Source of the DNA: an uncultured Candidatus Thioglobus sp.
GTDB lineage: Bacteria; Pseudomonadota; Gammaproteobacteria; PS1; Pseudothioglobaceae
Length of the DNA stretch: 32,200 bases
Direction of reading: 5' to 3'
Assembly: GCA_905612405.1 (NCBI GenBank)
Contig: CAJQRX010000012.1
Span: forward strand, 93,351 to 125,550
Every line of letters begins with the position of its first letter. Position 1 is the stretch's first letter. The notes beneath the pieces are model-generated. The model searched no databases. It saw only the letters and a program-made list of their open reading frames with translations, and was not told the DNA's origin. Positions 3,655 to 17,057 of the stretch are shown here, piece after piece. The translations under genes and the position numbers were made by a program.

Positions 3655-3995
3655 GTAAATATAAAAATAATTAAAGAGATAGAAACTGCTGCTGATGCAA
3701 CATCCTTGGCGAAACCTGATAACTCATGCTGCTCAAGACCAATCCTATCAACAACAGCCTCAATTGCTGAGTTTAACATTTCGACAATCAAAACTAAAAA
3801 TATAGGCGTAATAAGAAGTACTTTTTCAACGGGTGATTCACCAAGCCAGTAACCAAGAGGAGTCAGAACTAGTGTCAACCAAACTTCAAGTCTAAATGCA
3901 TATTCAGACTGATAGCAAGCCTTGAAACCTTTTGCAGAATAGATTGAAGCAGACCAAAGTTTTTTAATGCCCGTAGGCTTGTTATTTTGTTTCAT
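3633..3995 (-). CDS. dgkA: Diacylglycerol kinase
   Basis: 120 aa; EMLNSAIEAVVDRI and KDVASAAV motifs with three TM segments; 22-bp overlap with birA. Confidence 0.93.
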   Translation of the reverse strand: MKQNNKPTGIKKLWSASIYSAKGFKACYQSEYAFRLEVWLTLVLTPLGYWLGESPVEKVLLITPIFLVLIVEMLNSAIEAVVDRIGLEQHELSGFAKDVASAAVSISLIIFIFTWIIILL

Positions 3996-4093
3996 AAAGT
4001 TTGTATTATCCAGAATAGTCTCATTTAGATAGTTACAATAGTTTGTTAAAATATTACTATCGATTTTACAATAAAAAAAATTAGCGGTTGCTT

Positions 4094-4837
4094 ATGAAAA
4101 TTGCACTTGGTGTTGAATATTTAGGTACGGATTTTCATGGATGGCAAATCCAAAAATCTGGCCTGAGAACAGTCCAGGGCGTTGTTGAGCCCGCTTTATC
4201 TAAGATAGCAAATCATCCTGTAAGGGTATTTTGCAGTGGGAGAACCGATGCTGGCGTGCATGCACAAGAGCAAATCATTCATTTTGAAACTCAAACGACT
4301 AGGACCGATGGAGCATGGCTATTTGGAGGAAATGCAAACTTGCCAAGTGATGTAAATTTCAAATGGGCTAAGGAAGTCAATGATGACTTTCATGCTAGAT
4401 TTAATGCGCACGCGCGCTCTTATGAGTACAGAATTCACCATCATCCAGTTAGGTCATCACTAAAGACTGGCTATTATTTATGGGAGCCTAGGTCACTCAA
4501 CATTAATGAAATGAGAAAAGCAGCAGCTTTTTTAGTCGGTGAGCATGATTTTTCATGCTTTAGAGGAAGCATGTGCCAAGCAAAATCACCTATTAAGACT
4601 ATCGAATATCTTCAAATTGATGAGATAGGTGATGATCTCATTATTAAGGTTAAAGCAAATGCTTTTCTACACCACATGGTTCGCAACTTGGTAGGAACAC
4701 TTTTAAAGATTGGGAGGGGAGAGGAAAACCCTCAATGGATACTATCAGTGCTAGATAGTAAAGATCGGAAAGAAGCAGGGCCAACTGCCGAACCACAAGG
4801 CCTCTACTTTATAAAAGCCCACTATCAAAGTTTATAA
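4094..4837 (+). CDS. truA: tRNA pseudouridine(38-40) synthase
   Basis: MKIALGVEYLGTDFHGWQIQ and GRTDAGVHA motif. The track's 4088 start is TTG; ATG at 4094 is more likely. Confidence 0.95.
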   Translation: MKIALGVEYLGTDFHGWQIQKSGLRTVQGVVEPALSKIANHPVRVFCSGRTDAGVHAQEQIIHFETQTTRTDGAWLFGGNANLPSDVNFKWAKEVNDDFHARFNAHARSYEYRIHHHPVRSSLKTGYYLWEPRSLNINEMRKAAAFLVGEHDFSCFRGSMCQAKSPIKTIEYLQIDEIGDDLIIKVKANAFLHHMVRNLVGTLLKIGRGEENPQWILSVLDSKDRKEAGPTAEPQGLYFIKAHYQSL

Positions 4838-4841
4838 TTTA

Positions 4842-6650
4842 CTATTCCTCATCCACATTTTTAATATGTTCTAGCTCTTGCCAAACATATTTTAAGGCGT
4901 CCGCCCTTAAATCAAAAAATCGATTATTACCAAATCGCTTTTTGAATCCAGAGCGAAATAACTCTGCCTCCAATCTTTCAGTTCTTGCAAAAAGAATTTC
5001 AATTCCTGAATTTGAACATGTTTCAACTAAGCCAGATAAAACTTGCTCACCACTAGCATCAACCTGAACAATTGTTGCAACATCAACAATGATATATTTT
5101 AATCCCTCATTATTTTTAGCAATTAATTCAAGCATCTTTGTTTCAAAATATGCTGCATTAGCAAAATAAAGTGAGCCACTCCATTTTGCTACTTTAACGG
5201 AATTACTAACTTCATTTGAGTCATCTGCAAACCTTGAGGCAATAATCGAGCCATGTTCAACAGACAATTCAGAAAAATTTGGCTCCATAGTTCTATATAA
5301 AAATAATCCTAGAGACATAATTACCCCAAAAGCGATACCGTTTTCTAAATGCGGTGCAAAAACTAGTGTCATTACAAATGTTAATAGGCCAACTAATCCA
5401 TCATGCTTCTCAACTTTCCATGCATGCTTTAGCGGGGCGAAATGAATCAAACTTGCTACTGACATTAGAATGATAGCAGCTAATGTAGCGAGGGGAAGAT
5501 GGTAAAGTAAAGGTGTCAACCAAAGAATAGTTATGCCAACAATGACTGCCGTTACTACGGATGAAAAACCAGTAACTGCGCCAGCAGTTAAGTTAACTGC
5601 TGAACGTGAAAAAGAGCCTGAAACAGGGTAACCCTGAAAGAAACTTGAAGTAACGTTTGAAAGCCCCTGACCAATTAGTTCTTGATTCACATCTAAGCGC
5701 TGCTTCGTAGAAGCTGCCATTGACTTAGCAACTGATATTGCCTCCATAAACCCAATTAATGAGATTGTAATTGCATAAACAAATAAGGTTCCCACAGCAT
5801 TAAAATCAAAGCGCGGCATCTTAAAACTAAACAAACCATTTATGCTTATCGAATTTACAATAGCTCCTCCCATTCCTTGATAATCAATCAAGAATGACGC
5901 TGCCGTTGACAACACAGCTACAGTAAGGATTGCAGGCAATTTAGGGAAAAAACGCTGTAATATTATAATACCAACTACGCCCATTAGTGCCATAGCTAAT
6001 GTAGGCAGATGAGTGAAATAAAATGCAGCCTCAAGAAGTCTGGCTATAGTTTCATAACTTTGATCTGCGTTACAAATCGTATGAAGGCCTCCAACATCTA
6101 CACTCTCAACTCTTTCAGGGATAGATAGTGTTTGGCAAGCACTTACCCAGTCCGTATCATTTGAACTTATAACCCTTATACCAAAAACTTTAGGAAGTTG
6201 AGATGCTCCAATAATAATTGCAGCTGCACTTGTAAATCCAGTTACTACAGGGTGAGACAAGAAATTAACTACAAAACCTAATCTAAGAACGCCTAATGAA
6301 AACTGAAACAATCCCACGATGAGCGCCAATAATGCGGCATAAACTGCATAGCTCGATGGATCAGTAACTATTTCCCCAAGTGCGGCTGCAGTTAATAGAG
6401 ATACAACTGCAACTGGGCCTGTAGAGAGCTGCCTGGATGACCCCATCACTGCCCCAACTAAGACAGGCAAGAATGCAGCATAAAGACCATATTGTGGACC
6501 TAATCCAGCTAACTGAGCATATGCCATTGACTGAGGAACGATTACGAAACCAACAGTAAGGCCGGCTAAAATATCCGCTTTTAAAGTTTTTGGATTACTT
6601 AAATCTTTAATCCATAACAAAAATGGAAAGAGTTTTATCAACCAGCTCAT
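4842..6650 (-). CDS. SulP-family sulfate/anion permease with C-terminal STAS domain
   Basis: 602 aa, many TM segments, ADILAGLTVGFVIVPQSMAYAQLAGLGPQYGLYAAFLP signature, STAS-like C-terminus (IIVDVATIVQVDASGEQVL). Confidence 0.93.
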   Translation of the reverse strand: MSWLIKLFPFLLWIKDLSNPKTLKADILAGLTVGFVIVPQSMAYAQLAGLGPQYGLYAAFLPVLVGAVMGSSRQLSTGPVAVVSLLTAAALGEIVTDPSSYAVYAALLALIVGLFQFSLGVLRLGFVVNFLSHPVVTGFTSAAAIIIGASQLPKVFGIRVISSNDTDWVSACQTLSIPERVESVDVGGLHTICNADQSYETIARLLEAAFYFTHLPTLAMALMGVVGIIILQRFFPKLPAILTVAVLSTAASFLIDYQGMGGAIVNSISINGLFSFKMPRFDFNAVGTLFVYAITISLIGFMEAISVAKSMAASTKQRLDVNQELIGQGLSNVTSSFFQGYPVSGSFSRSAVNLTAGAVTGFSSVVTAVIVGITILWLTPLLYHLPLATLAAIILMSVASLIHFAPLKHAWKVEKHDGLVGLLTFVMTLVFAPHLENGIAFGVIMSLGLFLYRTMEPNFSELSVEHGSIIASRFADDSNEVSNSVKVAKWSGSLYFANAAYFETKMLELIAKNNEGLKYIIVDVATIVQVDASGEQVLSGLVETCSNSGIEILFARTERLEAELFRSGFKKRFGNNRFFDLRADALKYVWQELEHIKNVDEE

Positions 6651-7272: not shown

Positions 7273-7830
7273 TTATTTTTCTGCAGGCTTCTCTTCAGCT
7301 GCTGGAGTTTCTGCTGCGGCTTCTGCTACTGGAGTTTCTGCTGCGGCTTCTGCTACTGGAGTTTCTGCTGCGGCTTCTTCTACTGGAGCAGCTTCTGCTG
7401 CGGCTTCTTCTACTGGAGCAGCTTCTGCTGCGGCTTCTTCTACTGGAGCAGCTTCAGCTGCTGCTGAAGCAGCTTCAGCTGCTTCTTTTGCCTCTAAATC
7501 TGCCTTAGCTTTTACTTCAGCTGCAACTTTTTTAGCATTAACGTCAGCTTTTGCTGCATGTTTGGCTAATTGTTTTTCACGAATTGAAGGGTCTCTATAT
7601 TCTTTCACAAGCTGTTTTACGCGATCTGAAATCTGTGCGCCTTGTGAAATCCAATGTGACAGTCTGTCTTCTTCTAGTTGAAGCCTGACTTCTTGTCCGC
7701 GAGCAACTGGATTAAAGAATCCAATACGCTCAATGTACCCACTGTCTCTTCTCTTTCTAGAGTCAGTTGCTACAATCGAATAAAAAGGGTTTTTCTTGGC
7801 TCCACCTCGGGCTAGTCTAATCTTAACCAT
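7273..7830 (-). CDS. rpsP: 30S ribosomal protein S16 with ~100-residue Ala/Glu/Pro-rich repetitive C-terminal extension
   Basis: [41 protein letters not shown] is canonical S16, followed by a long [10 protein letters not shown] / AAAETPVAE repeat tail. Confidence 0.95.
7298..7468. repeat. In-frame tandem repeats inside rpsP: 3 x 27 bp then about 3 x 30 bp
   Basis: 27-bp unit GCTRCTGGAGTTTCTGCTGCGGCTTCT at 7298, 7325, 7352 (the first copy with one mismatch); 30-bp unit TCTACTGGAGCAGCTTCTGCTGCGGCTTCT perfect at 7379 and 7409, decaying third copy at 7439. Confidence 0.93.
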
Positions 7831-12480: not shown

Positions 12481-12570
12481 GGAGGGATGGCAGAGTGGTC
12501 GAATGCACTGGTCTTGAAAACCAGCAAGGGTTAATCCCCTTCCAGGGTTCGAATCCCTGTCCCTCCACCA
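12481..12570 (+). tRNA. tRNA-Ser(UGA)
   Basis: Class II tRNA: acceptor GGAGGGA/TCCCTCC, anticodon stem CTGGT/ACCAG with loop CTTGAAA (anticodon TGA), long variable arm, T-arm CAGGG-TTCGAAT-CCCTG, encoded CCA. Confidence 0.96.
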
Positions 12571-12571
12571 T
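12542..12571 (+). repeat. Left direct repeat (attL-like) within the tRNA-Ser 3' end
   Basis: CCAGGGTTCGAATCCCTGTCCCTCCACCAT, identical to 15031-15060. Confidence 0.95.
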
Positions 12572-12644
12572 GCATTCCTGCTACTAAAGCATCCTTATTT
12601 TAGATCCCTCACATTATGTCACTATATTCCAATAAATTGCTCTC

Positions 12645-12666
12645 ATTAGTGCAACATTAGTGCAGC
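12645..12666 (+). repeat. Arm-type-like repeat near left end (two tandem 11-mers)
   Basis: ATTAGTGCAAC-ATTAGTGCAGC; 20/22 identical to 14974-14995 in the same orientation. Confidence 0.75.
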
Positions 12667-12809
12667 TTTTCTCATAGTAATATAACAAAAAAAATTTGTA
12701 CTATTGCCATATCAAACATTACAGATATAGAATCAAACAAAGATAAATCGAGCCTTGTTAATAGAGTGATGAGTGGTATTTGGATTCAGAATAAACTACA
12801 ATATGATTT

Positions 12810-14324
12810 ATGAAAGATGAGCCAAATAACGACATCCCCAAATATCTAGAAGAGTTTCTAGAGCCAACAAGAAGTAGCATTGAAAAACTTCTTGCTGCTT
12901 TTGATGGCTTAAGTGTTGAAACTCAAATCAAATTGCTAAGTACGATTGAAGGAAAACTCAGCCAATGGGAATTTCCAAATATAACGTATCTCTATAAAAA
13001 AGTTTTTCTTAAGGCTTTTGAGAGTCCTAACTCTTATGTTCGTTACTTAAGTGTTCGCAACTTAGTTTCGATAATGTATGGAGATGACGAGGAGTTAAAT
13101 AATTTTATTGCTAAAGTAGATAAAGACAAAAGTAGTCTTGTCAGAAATTCTAGATTTGAAAGTTTAATTCGAGCAGGCTCAACGATGGCACTAATGGGTG
13201 ATGACTTCTTTACAAAGCAATCACACGATGAAAGATTAGCAAGAGTAAGAAGTGGGCATCTTGATGGCAAGTCCTTTGCAAAGTCATTAGAACGAGCTGC
13301 AAAAGATAAACATTTTGAAGAAACCAACGCGCAGATTGAACTTATTGAATTGTTAGATGAGTACTTGAGTAACCATTACAACAATAATGGCTATTATATG
13401 GAAGAACATACTTTTATAGACGGTTGGAGAGACTCCGATATTTCAAAAGAACTAGAAAGTTTATGGGATGTAATTCCTAGAATACCAGAATTAGCTGGGC
13501 GATTGTTGGTTAAGAAACTACCCGCAAGAGCTAGAAATATGGGTATGAATCCTTATAAAAATATCCTTTATGACTTAAGAGATGAGCAGCTTGAGTTTTT
13601 TCTAATACGAAAAGATATCAAAGTTGAGGAATTTAGAAAAGAGATATTTTGGAGAGATGAAATTCCAAATGATAATGAGGATAAATTTATGCCTTATCGT
13701 GAATTTTGGTCTCAAGCATCTTTATATCACTTTAAGCTTAATGAGGAAGAGTTTGCAACGATACTCAGTCTTCCTCCTAAAGAACAACAAAAGCGCTTGG
13801 AAAGTCTTTCTCAGGCTCATTCACTGGAGCTCTATCAATATCTAGCAATTATTCAATTAGTAACTAAATTTGATAAAGATTCTTATGATAACTTCTATAT
13901 ACATTTCGCAAAAGATGAGCTTAAAAAAAGACTTAATCAAGAACCAGAGTTCTTTAGAGATGAGCAATTAATCAAGCTAAGATTATACGACTTAGCTTAT
14001 AAGTCCAGAAATTGGAGAAATCCTGATGATTTATATAGCTGCGAGGAAATACTCTATCCTGTTAAAGTTGAAGATGATACCTGGAAGACATTTCTTGCCT
14101 TTATAGTGGCTTTTAAGGAATCGGAATTGACTCTTAAAGATTTACATAAAACTGAATATGAAGAATGGGAGGAAGAGGAAGAAGAAAAACCTCTAGAAAA
14201 GCCTCTTGCAAATGAGTTGAATCAGCTAAATTCTTTAATATCGACTACCAGAGATGCGGTCCTCCAGAGTAGGCCTGCATTAGCAGTAATTGCTGGGCTT
14301 ATTCTTATATCGATAATATTCTAA
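12810..14324 (+). CDS. Unknown 504-aa island protein; possible HEAT-like N-terminal region, acidic linker, C-terminal TM helix (tail-anchor-like)
   Basis: Long ORF with ATG start. The sequence is rich in helical, charged segments and ends LQSRPALAVIAGLILISIIF, a hydrophobic C-terminus. No family recognised by eye. Confidence 0.85.
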   Translation: MKDEPNNDIPKYLEEFLEPTRSSIEKLLAAFDGLSVETQIKLLSTIEGKLSQWEFPNITYLYKKVFLKAFESPNSYVRYLSVRNLVSIMYGDDEELNNFIAKVDKDKSSLVRNSRFESLIRAGSTMALMGDDFFTKQSHDERLARVRSGHLDGKSFAKSLERAAKDKHFEETNAQIELIELLDEYLSNHYNNNGYYMEEHTFIDGWRDSDISKELESLWDVIPRIPELAGRLLVKKLPARARNMGMNPYKNILYDLRDEQLEFFLIRKDIKVEEFRKEIFWRDEIPNDNEDKFMPYREFWSQASLYHFKLNEEEFATILSLPPKEQQKRLESLSQAHSLELYQYLAIIQLVTKFDKDSYDNFYIHFAKDELKKRLNQEPEFFRDEQLIKLRLYDLAYKSRNWRNPDDLYSCEEILYPVKVEDDTWKTFLAFIVAFKESELTLKDLHKTEYEEWEEEEEEKPLEKPLANELNQLNSLISTTRDAVLQSRPALAVIAGLILISIIF

Positions 14325-14328
14325 ATCT

Positions 14329-14910
14329 ATGAAAAAACTCTATAAAAAATTAATCAGTCAGCTAATCGAAATTGGTCGCTCAGAGATAATTCCAACAATC
14401 GCTGATTCAGAGTTTAGTTACTTAAGGAAAGGAAAGTGGCTGAGACCAAAAGCAGTAGATTTTGACAATTATGTCTATGAAGAGCTTAAGTCACTATACA
14501 AAGGTGTTGTTCTTTGTGAAAAAGAATTTGAGTGGCAGACAGGCTCAACTACTTCGACTAATTGGCTTTTTGATAAGCTTGCAGTTAGAGCAGAATATAG
14601 TGAACATTATCAAGAGAAAAAAGAGTTATACGAATTTGGCTTTGCCAATAGAGGCTACTTTTCTTATGCTTCTGCAGGTATGGGGCTTGGCTCAAACTAT
14701 GAAAACTATGAAGACTATTTGAAAGCTTCTGCTGAAGCTAAAATTGAAAAAGCGAAACGCTCAGCTCAGTTGTTTGAAATTCAAAAAGCAAGTAAAGAGT
14801 TGTCAGCTGTTAAAAAAGAATTTAAAGAAAGAGATAAAGAAGAAAGAATGAAAGAGCGTGCTAAGAGAAAAAAAGAAAAAGATAAAGATATAATAATTAC
14901 TGAATACTAA
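14329..14910 (+). CDS. Unknown 193-aa island protein with highly charged, likely coiled-coil C-terminus
   Basis: Starts 4 bp after the stop of the upstream ORF, same strand; C-terminus KKEFKERDKEERMKERAKRKKEKDKD. Confidence 0.83.
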   Translation: MKKLYKKLISQLIEIGRSEIIPTIADSEFSYLRKGKWLRPKAVDFDNYVYEELKSLYKGVVLCEKEFEWQTGSTTSTNWLFDKLAVRAEYSEHYQEKKELYEFGFANRGYFSYASAGMGLGSNYENYEDYLKASAEAKIEKAKRSAQLFEIQKASKELSAVKKEFKERDKEERMKERAKRKKEKDKDIIITEY

Positions 14911-14973
14911 CAGTTCTCAAAAATAATTTGTTTTGATTCTAATTTTGAACTTTATGATTGCCTGAAATTACAG

Positions 14974-14995
14974 ATTAGTGCAACATTACTGCAAC
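14974..14995 (+). repeat. Arm-type-like repeat near right end
   Basis: ATTAGTGCAAC-ATTACTGCAAC; 20/22 match to 12645-12666. Confidence 0.75.
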
Positions 14996-15030
14996 ATAGC
15001 CTCTCTAGGCACTACTTCGACAACATGAGG

Positions 15031-15060
15031 CCAGGGTTCGAATCCCTGTCCCTCCACCAT
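15031..15060 (+). repeat. Right direct repeat (attR-like), isolated tRNA-Ser 3' fragment
   Basis: Exact copy of 12542-12571, preceded by sequence that does not form the rest of a tRNA. Confidence 0.95.
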
Positions 15061-15214
15061 TAATTTCCTTTAAGAAAACATCCTTATTCAGTAAGAATTA
15101 GATGGTGAGGTAAAAATGAATTATTAACTTCATCAAATCAACTTCAAATCTTCATTTAATTGAAATAATTTTATTGTAAATTACGTTTTCTTTTAATAAC
15201 TAACTAAGGAACAC

Positions 15215-16146: not shown

Positions 16147-16590
16147 TTACTTATAGCTCTTTTGTAAGTCTGCCAATAATTCTATGACATGACTATAACC
16201 ATTGGCACCAAGACCAGCAACTACAGCATCTACCACAGGTGAGATATAAGAAACATGCCGAAAAGATTCTCGTAAATGTGGGTTAGAAATATGCAGCTCT
16301 ATTTTGAAACCTGAAAATGATTTTAATGCGTCATGAATTGCAATTGAAGTGTGAGTGTAAGCTGCTGCATTAATAACAATAGCGTCTATTTTTTCTTTGA
16401 TTGCATTTTGAATCCACTCAACTATTTCGCCCTCATAATTAGACTGCATAAATTTAACATCATGGCCATCTTTTAATCCCTTTTTGATGCAATCCTTTGA
16501 GATACTATCTAATGTCTCATGCCCATAAATCTCAGGCTCACGCGTACCAAGTAGATTTATATTTGGACCATTTATAACGTATATATTCAT
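16147..16590 (-). CDS. aroQ: Type II 3-dehydroquinate dehydratase
   Basis: NGPNINLLGTREPEIYG, QSNYEGEIVEWIQ, NAAAYTHTSIAIHDAL, ELHISNPHLRESFRHVSYISP. The track start at 16593 is TTG; ATG at 16590 overlaps the upstream TGA (TGATG). Confidence 0.94.
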   Translation of the reverse strand: MNIYVINGPNINLLGTREPEIYGHETLDSISKDCIKKGLKDGHDVKFMQSNYEGEIVEWIQNAIKEKIDAIVINAAAYTHTSIAIHDALKSFSGFKIELHISNPHLRESFRHVSYISPVVDAVVAGLGANGYSHVIELLADLQKSYK

Positions 16591-17057
16591 CAATTTTTTC
16601 TCAGTTTTCTATGCACTGCTCTAATAGCAAGTTCATAGCTATGAATACCAAATCCACTTACAAACCCAACGTTCCCTTCAGATACTTTTATAGGCTCAGT
16701 AACATCAACCCTTTTTTGAAAAATATTGGCAATATGCACCTCAATAACTGGTTTATTTTGAAGAGTAACTGTTTCTATATTCGAAGTATAAATATCAAAG
16801 TCTAGCGATGATGCATTAGCATAACTTACAGGATTGATTATGAGCGCATCAAACTCTTTACAAGCCCTTGTTAAATAATTCGTTAACTCAGCCTCATCAT
16901 CAGATTGACAGAACTCTAAAGATAAGCCTAAACTCTCACAAGTTTCTGAGCATTTTTTCTGAACTTTCTCTAAAGTAAGATCATCATGACCAAATTCATT
17001 AAAGTGACTTAAATCTGAGAGACCAGGTCCATTAATTATTAGTAATCTATTATTCAT
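16590..17057 (-). CDS. Degenerate AroQ-like protein (predicted catalytically inactive paralog)
   Basis: 155 aa, AroQ-like frame NGPGLSDLSHFNEFGHDDLT...CQSDDEAELTNYL...ALIINPVSYANAS...VIEVHIANI...GFGIHSYELAIRAV, but key motifs altered. Confidence 0.78.
   Translation of the reverse strand: MNNRLLIINGPGLSDLSHFNEFGHDDLTLEKVQKKCSETCESLGLSLEFCQSDDEAELTNYLTRACKEFDALIINPVSYANASSLDFDIYTSNIETVTLQNKPVIEVHIANIFQKRVDVTEPIKVSEGNVGFVSGFGIHSYELAIRAVHRKLRKN

What the first reader, a model, noticed from the sequence alone, without database searches (positions are those of the whole stretch)
12542..15060. tRNA-Ser-nested mini-island with att repeats but no integrase, carrying only two unknown genes
Seen directly: an intact tRNA-Ser(UGA) at 12481-12570, and an exact 30-bp copy of its 3' end (CCAGGGTTCGAATCCCTGTCCCTCCACCAT) at 15031-15060. 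The spacing between copies is 2489 bp, and the interior holds just two co-directional ORFs (504 and 193 aa). Established knowledge: tyrosine recombinases of phages, satellites and genomic islands commonly integrate in tRNA 3' ends and leave this type of duplication. Inference: this is a compact non-autonomous element mobilised in trans by a phage or island integrase, or a decayed remnant, whose only cargo is a two-gene module. Such cargo is often anti-phage or interference-related, so this is the best candidate in the window for an undescribed system.
Basis: partly seen in the sequence, partly recalled or inferred. Interest (0 to 1): 0.85.

Follow-up and report, generated by a model that had tools for sequence, protein, structure and literature searches.

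The report
Integrase-less island with phage attachment site
A 2.5-kb stretch of DNA sits in a serine tRNA gene of a marine bacterium, carries two genes of unknown function and no enzyme of its own, but has at both ends the attachment site used by a family of marine viruses, so it probably moves by borrowing a virus's integrase.

Summary
In detail: tRNA-Ser(UGA) 12481-12570, an exact 30-bp copy of its 3' end at 15031-15060, two co-directional ORFs (504 and 193 aa), no integrase. It is a real, variable insertion: relatives have an unoccupied site (G026), a different 4.1-kb element (G020) or a decayed 1.2-kb one (G025) at the same place. Between att copy and arms, both ends are homologous to the attP of marine temperate tailed phages that encode a tyrosine integrase beside it. 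Models built from phage sequences only, without the tRNA core, find both ends in the right place and orientation (E 1e-11 and 8e-7). That integrase was found in none of the 29 genus genomes, yet integrase-less elements with such ends occur at two tRNA genes with unrelated cargo. Best reading: small non-autonomous elements keep a phage attP and use phage integrase in trans. Movement itself was not shown, the exact helper was not found, and the cargo has no detectable relatives; a defence role is untested.

The parts
12481..12570 (+). tRNA-Ser(UGA), intact; target gene of the insertion
   Evidence: ARAGORN
12542..12571 (+). att core copy 1 (attL), the 3' end of the tRNA
   Evidence: exact match to 15031-15060; none in shuffles
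12572..12669 (+). P' half of a phage-type attP
   Evidence: phage-only model R2 hits 12576-12669, 39.7 bits, E 1e-11; 68.8% identity over 208 bp of joined attP to phage L164
12645..12666 (+). two tandem 11-bp arm-type repeats ATTAGTGCAAC/ATTAGTGCAGC
   Evidence: repeat search; same motif in G020
12810..14324 (+). ORF1, 504 aa, helical by prediction (low confidence), hydrophobic C-terminus (residues 487-504); no known family
14329..14910 (+). ORF2, 193 aa, starts 4 bp after the ORF1 stop, highly charged helical C-terminus; no known family
14936..14997 (+). weak P'-like extension on the P side, where the phages have the int gene
   Evidence: R2 13.6 bits, E 0.0014 in the window; much stronger in G020, L046 5172-5251, 30.3 bits
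14974..14995 (+). two tandem 11-bp arm-type repeats ATTAGTGCAAC/ATTACTGCAAC
14974..15030 (+). P half of the phage-type attP (arms and spacer up to the core)
   Evidence: phage-only model R3 hits 14974-15016, 24.3 bits, E 7.5e-7
15031..15060 (+). att core copy 2 (attR)
   Evidence: degenerate by 3 bases in G025, 1 in G020

Best explanation
The element (about 2.49 kb, 12572-15060) is a non-autonomous integrative element: a phage-type attP split over its two ends, plus a two-gene cargo and no integrase. A temperate phage of the L156/L164 type with arm motif TTAGTGCAACA, entering or resident in the same cell, would supply integrase (and excisionase) that bind the arm sites and the tRNA-3' core, excising the element as a circle and inserting it into tRNA-Ser(UGA) of another cell. 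Between cells it most likely travels in phage particles, either co-excised in tandem with a phage at the same tRNA or packaged on its own. Shown: insertion polymorphism, phage homology of both ends, absence of integrase, unrelated cargo behind the same ends. Inferred: recombination in trans, helper identity, route between cells. The cargo is an accessory two-gene operon of unresolved function.
For: Unoccupied site in G026 and different elements in G020 and G025 at the same tRNA. Arm repeats at both ends, identical motif in G020. Ten phage contigs with the same attP layout directly beside a tyrosine integrase. Phage-only, core-free models find both window ends in the right place and orientation. 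Joined ends align with phage attP, E 8e-25 for the window and 7e-43 for G020. Phage core L156-L163 equals tRNA-Pro(UGG) of the same bacterial family, found in 16 of 29 genus genomes against 5 of 387 class genomes. Integrase family absent from all 29 genus genomes. A further element at tRNA-Ser(GCT) in G023 has other cargo and the arm code of phages L161-L163.
Against: No circle, empty-site read or transfer was observed. The exact helper (arms TTAGTGCAACA with a tRNA-Ser(UGA) core) was not found in the viral contigs or genomes searched. Several relatives carry decayed ends (G025, G008, G009, G017, G018), as expected of remnants. The inverted arm of the phage attP is not recognisable in the window. 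Half the genus genomes are incomplete drafts, so absence of integrase is weaker than it looks.
Confidence: 0.72

Rival explanations
1. A decayed prophage or satellite: a phage or island of this family integrated at tRNA-Ser(UGA), and internal deletion left only the att ends plus two passenger genes. It no longer moves.
For: Decayed ends exist in relatives (G025 att with 3 mismatches and no recognisable arms; P' scars at G008, G009, G017, G018). Defective prophages are common (PMC2669165).
Against: Window, G020 and G023 share little but attP-type sequence with the phages and no phage genes or int fragment remains; unrelated cargo behind the same ends; att copies 30/30 identical in the window and arms intact at both ends, which an unused remnant would lose.
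Confidence: 0.17
2. A composite island in cis: the element never moves alone but is co-excised with an integrase-bearing neighbour that inserts in tandem at the same tRNA (CIME-like accretion).
For: G006 has a second P' copy behind a truncated tRNA 3' piece at the downstream junction; G005 carries an integrase at the same tRNA; CIME-IME and CIME-ICE tandems are documented (PMC5704250).
Against: Window, G020 and G023 elements stand alone between their own core copies; the G005 integrase has other flanking repeats and is only 20% identical to the phage integrase. Nothing tested excludes both routes operating.
Confidence: 0.08
3. The ORF pair is a defence or phage-interference system and the att context is incidental.
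For: Small phage-associated islands often carry such genes (general knowledge); the pair has no housekeeping relatives.
Against: No usable match to PADLOC, Pfam, PHROGs or NCBIfam, no relatives at all, and an element elsewhere carries genes that look metabolic. The att context is homologous to phage attP and is not incidental.
Confidence: 0.03

Closest known systems
Temperate tailed phages of the L156-L165 type (IMG/VR contigs; integrases about 40% identical to those of Pseudomonas phage JBD68 and Halomonas phage H4907)
   Same: attP layout, spacer sequences and arm spacing (162 bp in the phages, 160 in the window)
   Different: The phages encode integrase, excisionase and virion genes; their core is tRNA-Pro(UGG) or tmRNA-like; their arm motifs differ from TTAGTGCAACA
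Cis-mobilizable elements (CIMEs), as defined in PMC5704250
   Same: attL and attR kept, no integrase or transfer genes, tandem arrangements at one tRNA
   Different: CIMEs derive from ICEs or IMEs by deletion; here the ends are phage-type and the cargo is unrelated between elements
MITEs and CALINs (hitchers of transposases and integron integrases; PMC11389934)
   Same: Keep the recombination sites, lack the enzyme, depend on a helper in trans
   Different: Other recombinase; site-specific tRNA target; protein-coding cargo of kilobase size
Phage satellites: PICI, PICMI, tycheposon, P4-like islands
   Same: Small, tRNA-integrated, probably phage-dependent; G020 shares an AlpA-like and a 370-aa protein family with an integrase-bearing island in G017
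   Different: Those encode their own recombinase and, for PICIs, a regulator and replication module (PMC6092414; PMC10872708)

Membership tests
Recombinase hitcher (MITE/CALIN-like, in the broad sense) | Carries the helper's recombination sites | tested here: met
   Phage-only models hit both ends
Recombinase hitcher (MITE/CALIN-like, in the broad sense) | Lacks the recombinase | tested here: met
   Only two ORFs, no integrase match
Recombinase hitcher (MITE/CALIN-like, in the broad sense) | Is recombined in trans by the helper | not testable with these tools
   Needs reads or a reporter assay
CIME | attL and attR retained, integration and transfer genes absent | tested here: met
CIME | Derived from an ICE or IME by deletion | tested here: not met
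   Ends homologous to phage attP beside phage genes; no conjugation genes seen
PICI | Own integrase, regulator and replication module, about 12-15 kb | tested here: not met
   2.5 kb, two ORFs, none of these; definition from PMC6092414
Tycheposon | tRNA at the border and its own tyrosine recombinase | tested here: not met
   tRNA present, recombinase absent; definition as used in PMC10872708
Known anti-phage defence system | Match to a known defence gene family | tested here: not met
   PADLOC: only a 16-bit partial hit of ORF2 to a 1791-position model

The most novel reading that the evidence does not exclude
A class of phage-integrase hitchers: integrase-less mini-islands that are a helper phage attP plus arbitrary cargo, whose helper is chosen by an 11-bp arm code that diversifies between phages (at least five codes seen in phages, a sixth in the window and G020), acting as a general gene-cassette system in streamlined marine gammaproteobacteria whose genomes lack the integrase.
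Probability: 0.4. Interest if true: 0.8.

Novelty: new variant of a known kind. Interest (0 to 1): 0.66.

Why it matters
Many small genomic islands have repeats but no integrase and are usually dismissed as remnants. Here the borrowed recombinase family can be named from sequence, the helper code can be read (the arm motif), and the idea can be tested with one integrase and one attL/attR reporter. It offers a route by which single operons could move between streamlined marine bacteria, and it shows how to find such elements: search for phage attP halves, not for integrases.

Tried and rejected
Chance repeat: rejected. Xer-dependent integration: not pursued; the duplicated core is a tRNA 3' end and the ends resemble phage attP. 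Known families for ORF1/ORF2: none usable. Relatives of ORF1 in 84 family and 399 phylum genomes, in the genome, viral, plasmid and phage collections and in the PDB: none; ORF2 in the viral and plasmid collections: none; ORF2 was not searched across genomes. AlphaFold models: pLDDT 43 and 51; the fold search gave nothing with E below 0.001. ORF1 against the satellite protein pair G020-370aa/G017-333aa: no similarity. Exact att, arm and junction patterns in viral contigs: none; only the relaxed arm pattern found the phages, and ten of its 13 contigs were single chance-like matches. Single arm-like hits in G057, G222 and G019 lie in or near ordinary genes and were dismissed. The G005 integrase as helper: different repeats and 20% identity, not favoured.

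Full report
OBSERVATION. The tRNA-Ser(UGA), the exact 30-bp duplication, the 2489-bp spacing and the two ORFs are as described. The two ORFs show host-like codon bias in frame. No recombinase is encoded in the interval.

VARIABLE INSERTION. The window lies in a 1.09-Mb, 58-contig, 68%-complete genome; 29 genomes of its genus and 84 of its family are held. At the same acnB/tRNA-Ser site, G026 (left flank 96.2% identical) is unoccupied, the tRNA being followed directly by the sequence that follows the window's right repeat. G025 (left flank 99.5%) has a 1.2-kb element with one 328-aa ORF and a degenerate repeat. G020 has a 4.1-kb element with a different cargo (DUF2130 protein, AlpA-like HTH, 249-aa, 370-aa and 83-aa proteins) and a repeat that matches in 29 of 30 bases. 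G005 has a 397-aa integrase directly beside the tRNA. Most other relatives have no second repeat. ORF1 occurs in none of the other family genomes.

ARM SITES. Just inside both att copies the window has two tandem 11-bp repeats, ATTAGTGCAAC, in the same orientation. G020 has the same motif at both ends. Window and G020 share their ends and no cargo. A core flanked by direct arm repeats is the layout that lambda-type tyrosine integrases use; that is general knowledge, not tested here.

THE PHAGES. A relaxed arm pattern in viral contigs hit 13 contigs; three carried two arm pairs 162 bp apart around a tRNA/tmRNA-3'-like core, directly beside a tyrosine integrase. One of them encodes a terminase and a head-tail adaptor, and a gene beside int matches an excisionase family. 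An integrase search gave 19 loci, ten with the same attP layout: two direct arms, a conserved spacer (CTACAGACCCTACTAATAAAGGAA), the core, CTACTAAAGCATTCTTA, an inverted arm, GTCTGAATA...GGCT, two direct arms. The arm motif changes between phages (TTAATGCAACA, TTAGGGCAACA, ATTATCGCACG, TTAATGCACGA, TTAAGACAGCA), and by eye the inverted copy changes with it. G082, in the same bacterial family, has a 42%-identical integrase beside a tRNA-like core with arms AAAAGTGGCAT.

HOMOLOGY OF THE ENDS, NON-CIRCULAR TEST. The joined window ends align with phage attP at 69% over 208 bp (E 8e-25), G020 at 80% over 204 bp (E 7e-43). Because tRNA cores resemble each other anyway, models were built from the phages alone and without the core: the P' model hits 12576-12669 (39.7 bits, E 1e-11) and the P model 14974-15016 (24.3 bits, E 7.5e-7). 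Outside the ends no similarity of the window element to the phage loci was found. On the P side G020, and weakly the window, carry P'-like sequence where the phages have int, so the elements do not look like simple deletions of the sampled phages.

HOST LINK. The core of phages L156-L163 equals the 3' end of tRNA-Pro(UGG). It is present in 16 of 29 genus genomes with at most one mismatch, and exactly in 5 of 387 class genomes, three of them in the same family. The G008 tmRNA 3' end nearly equals the core of L164/L165. So the phages probably infect this bacterial family. The public contig with the length and arm position of G020:C22 is from a marine-type single-cell record, 'uncultured gamma proteobacterium' AG-313-L21 (CABXDP010000022.1). 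I infer a SUP05/Thioglobus-like group, but did not test the name.

OTHER ELEMENTS. The P' model found further sites in the genus. G023 has, at tRNA-Ser(GCT), a 2.5-kb interval with two genes that by eye look metabolic (an aminotransferase-like and a kinase-like protein), a copy of the tRNA 3' end, and a right end with arms TTAATGCACGA, the code of phages L161-L163; its left end is degraded. G006 has a P' half beside tRNA-Ser(UGA) at a contig end and a second one at the downstream junction, behind a truncated tRNA 3' piece: apparently a tandem array. No integrase of the phage type was found in any of the 29 genus genomes. G020's HTH (61%) and 370-aa protein (30%) have relatives in an integrase-bearing island of G017, so at least that element mixes satellite-type genes with a phage attP.

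MECHANISM. Shown: polymorphic insertion, phage-homologous ends, retained arms, no integrase, interchangeable cargo. Inferred: a phage with the matching arm code supplies integrase and Xis in trans; transfer is by phage particles, alone or as a tandem composite. The predicted helper (arms TTAGTGCAACA, core tRNA-Ser(UGA)) was not found. Within the model it is also possible that one integrase tolerates several tRNA cores, because T-arms are alike and only the overlap must match between attP and attB; this is untested.

CARGO. ORF1 and ORF2 have no detectable relatives in anything searched, and the structure models are too poor to use. The hydrophobic C-terminus of ORF1 and the charged helix of ORF2 are the only hints. 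A defence role is possible and untested.

COMPARISON AND VERDICT. It works like a MITE or CALIN with a phage integrase in place of a transposase or integron integrase, and looks like a CIME whose parent is a phage rather than an ICE. It fails the defining features of PICIs and tycheposons (no integrase). In the papers searched I found no described group of integrase-less elements that share a phage attP with exchangeable cargo, but the library is partial.

Noticed in passing
L195 (G023:C5:44000-58000), about 3866-6382 on the reverse strand: Another integrase-less 2.5-kb interval at tRNA-Ser(GCT) with two metabolic-looking genes and a phage-type right end (arms TTAATGCACGA); the same two genes stand beside the tmRNA with a degraded P' half in G008 (L196).
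   Followed up: partly
L101 and L194 (G006:C7 and G006:C34): P' half beside tRNA-Ser(UGA) at a contig end and a second P' half behind a truncated tRNA 3' piece at the downstream junction: apparently tandem elements at one tRNA.
   Followed up: partly
L046 5172-5251 and window 14936-14997: P'-like sequence on the P side of the elements, where the phages have int; makes the two ends partly symmetrical.
   Followed up: partly
window 12542-12599 and 15031-15088: Similarity between the two att copies extends 28 bp beyond the core (84% over 58 bp), so the chromosomal flank resembles the phage P' half; possibly a scar of an older insertion.
   Followed up: no
L156-L165 (viral contigs): Arm motif differs between related phages while layout and spacers are conserved, and all arm copies within one attP agree: looks like coevolution of integrase and arm code.
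   Followed up: partly
L047 5129-6115 (G025): Cargo of the decayed G025 element: 328-aa protein with a signal-peptide-like start and an HEAIH motif (possible secreted metallopeptidase), no Pfam match.
   Followed up: partly
window 7273-7830: Ribosomal protein S16-like gene with a long Ala/Glu/Pro-rich repetitive C-terminal tail.
   Followed up: no
window 16147-17057: Two adjacent genes resembling 3-dehydroquinate dehydratase (aroQ); the second copy is more diverged between relatives.
   Followed up: no
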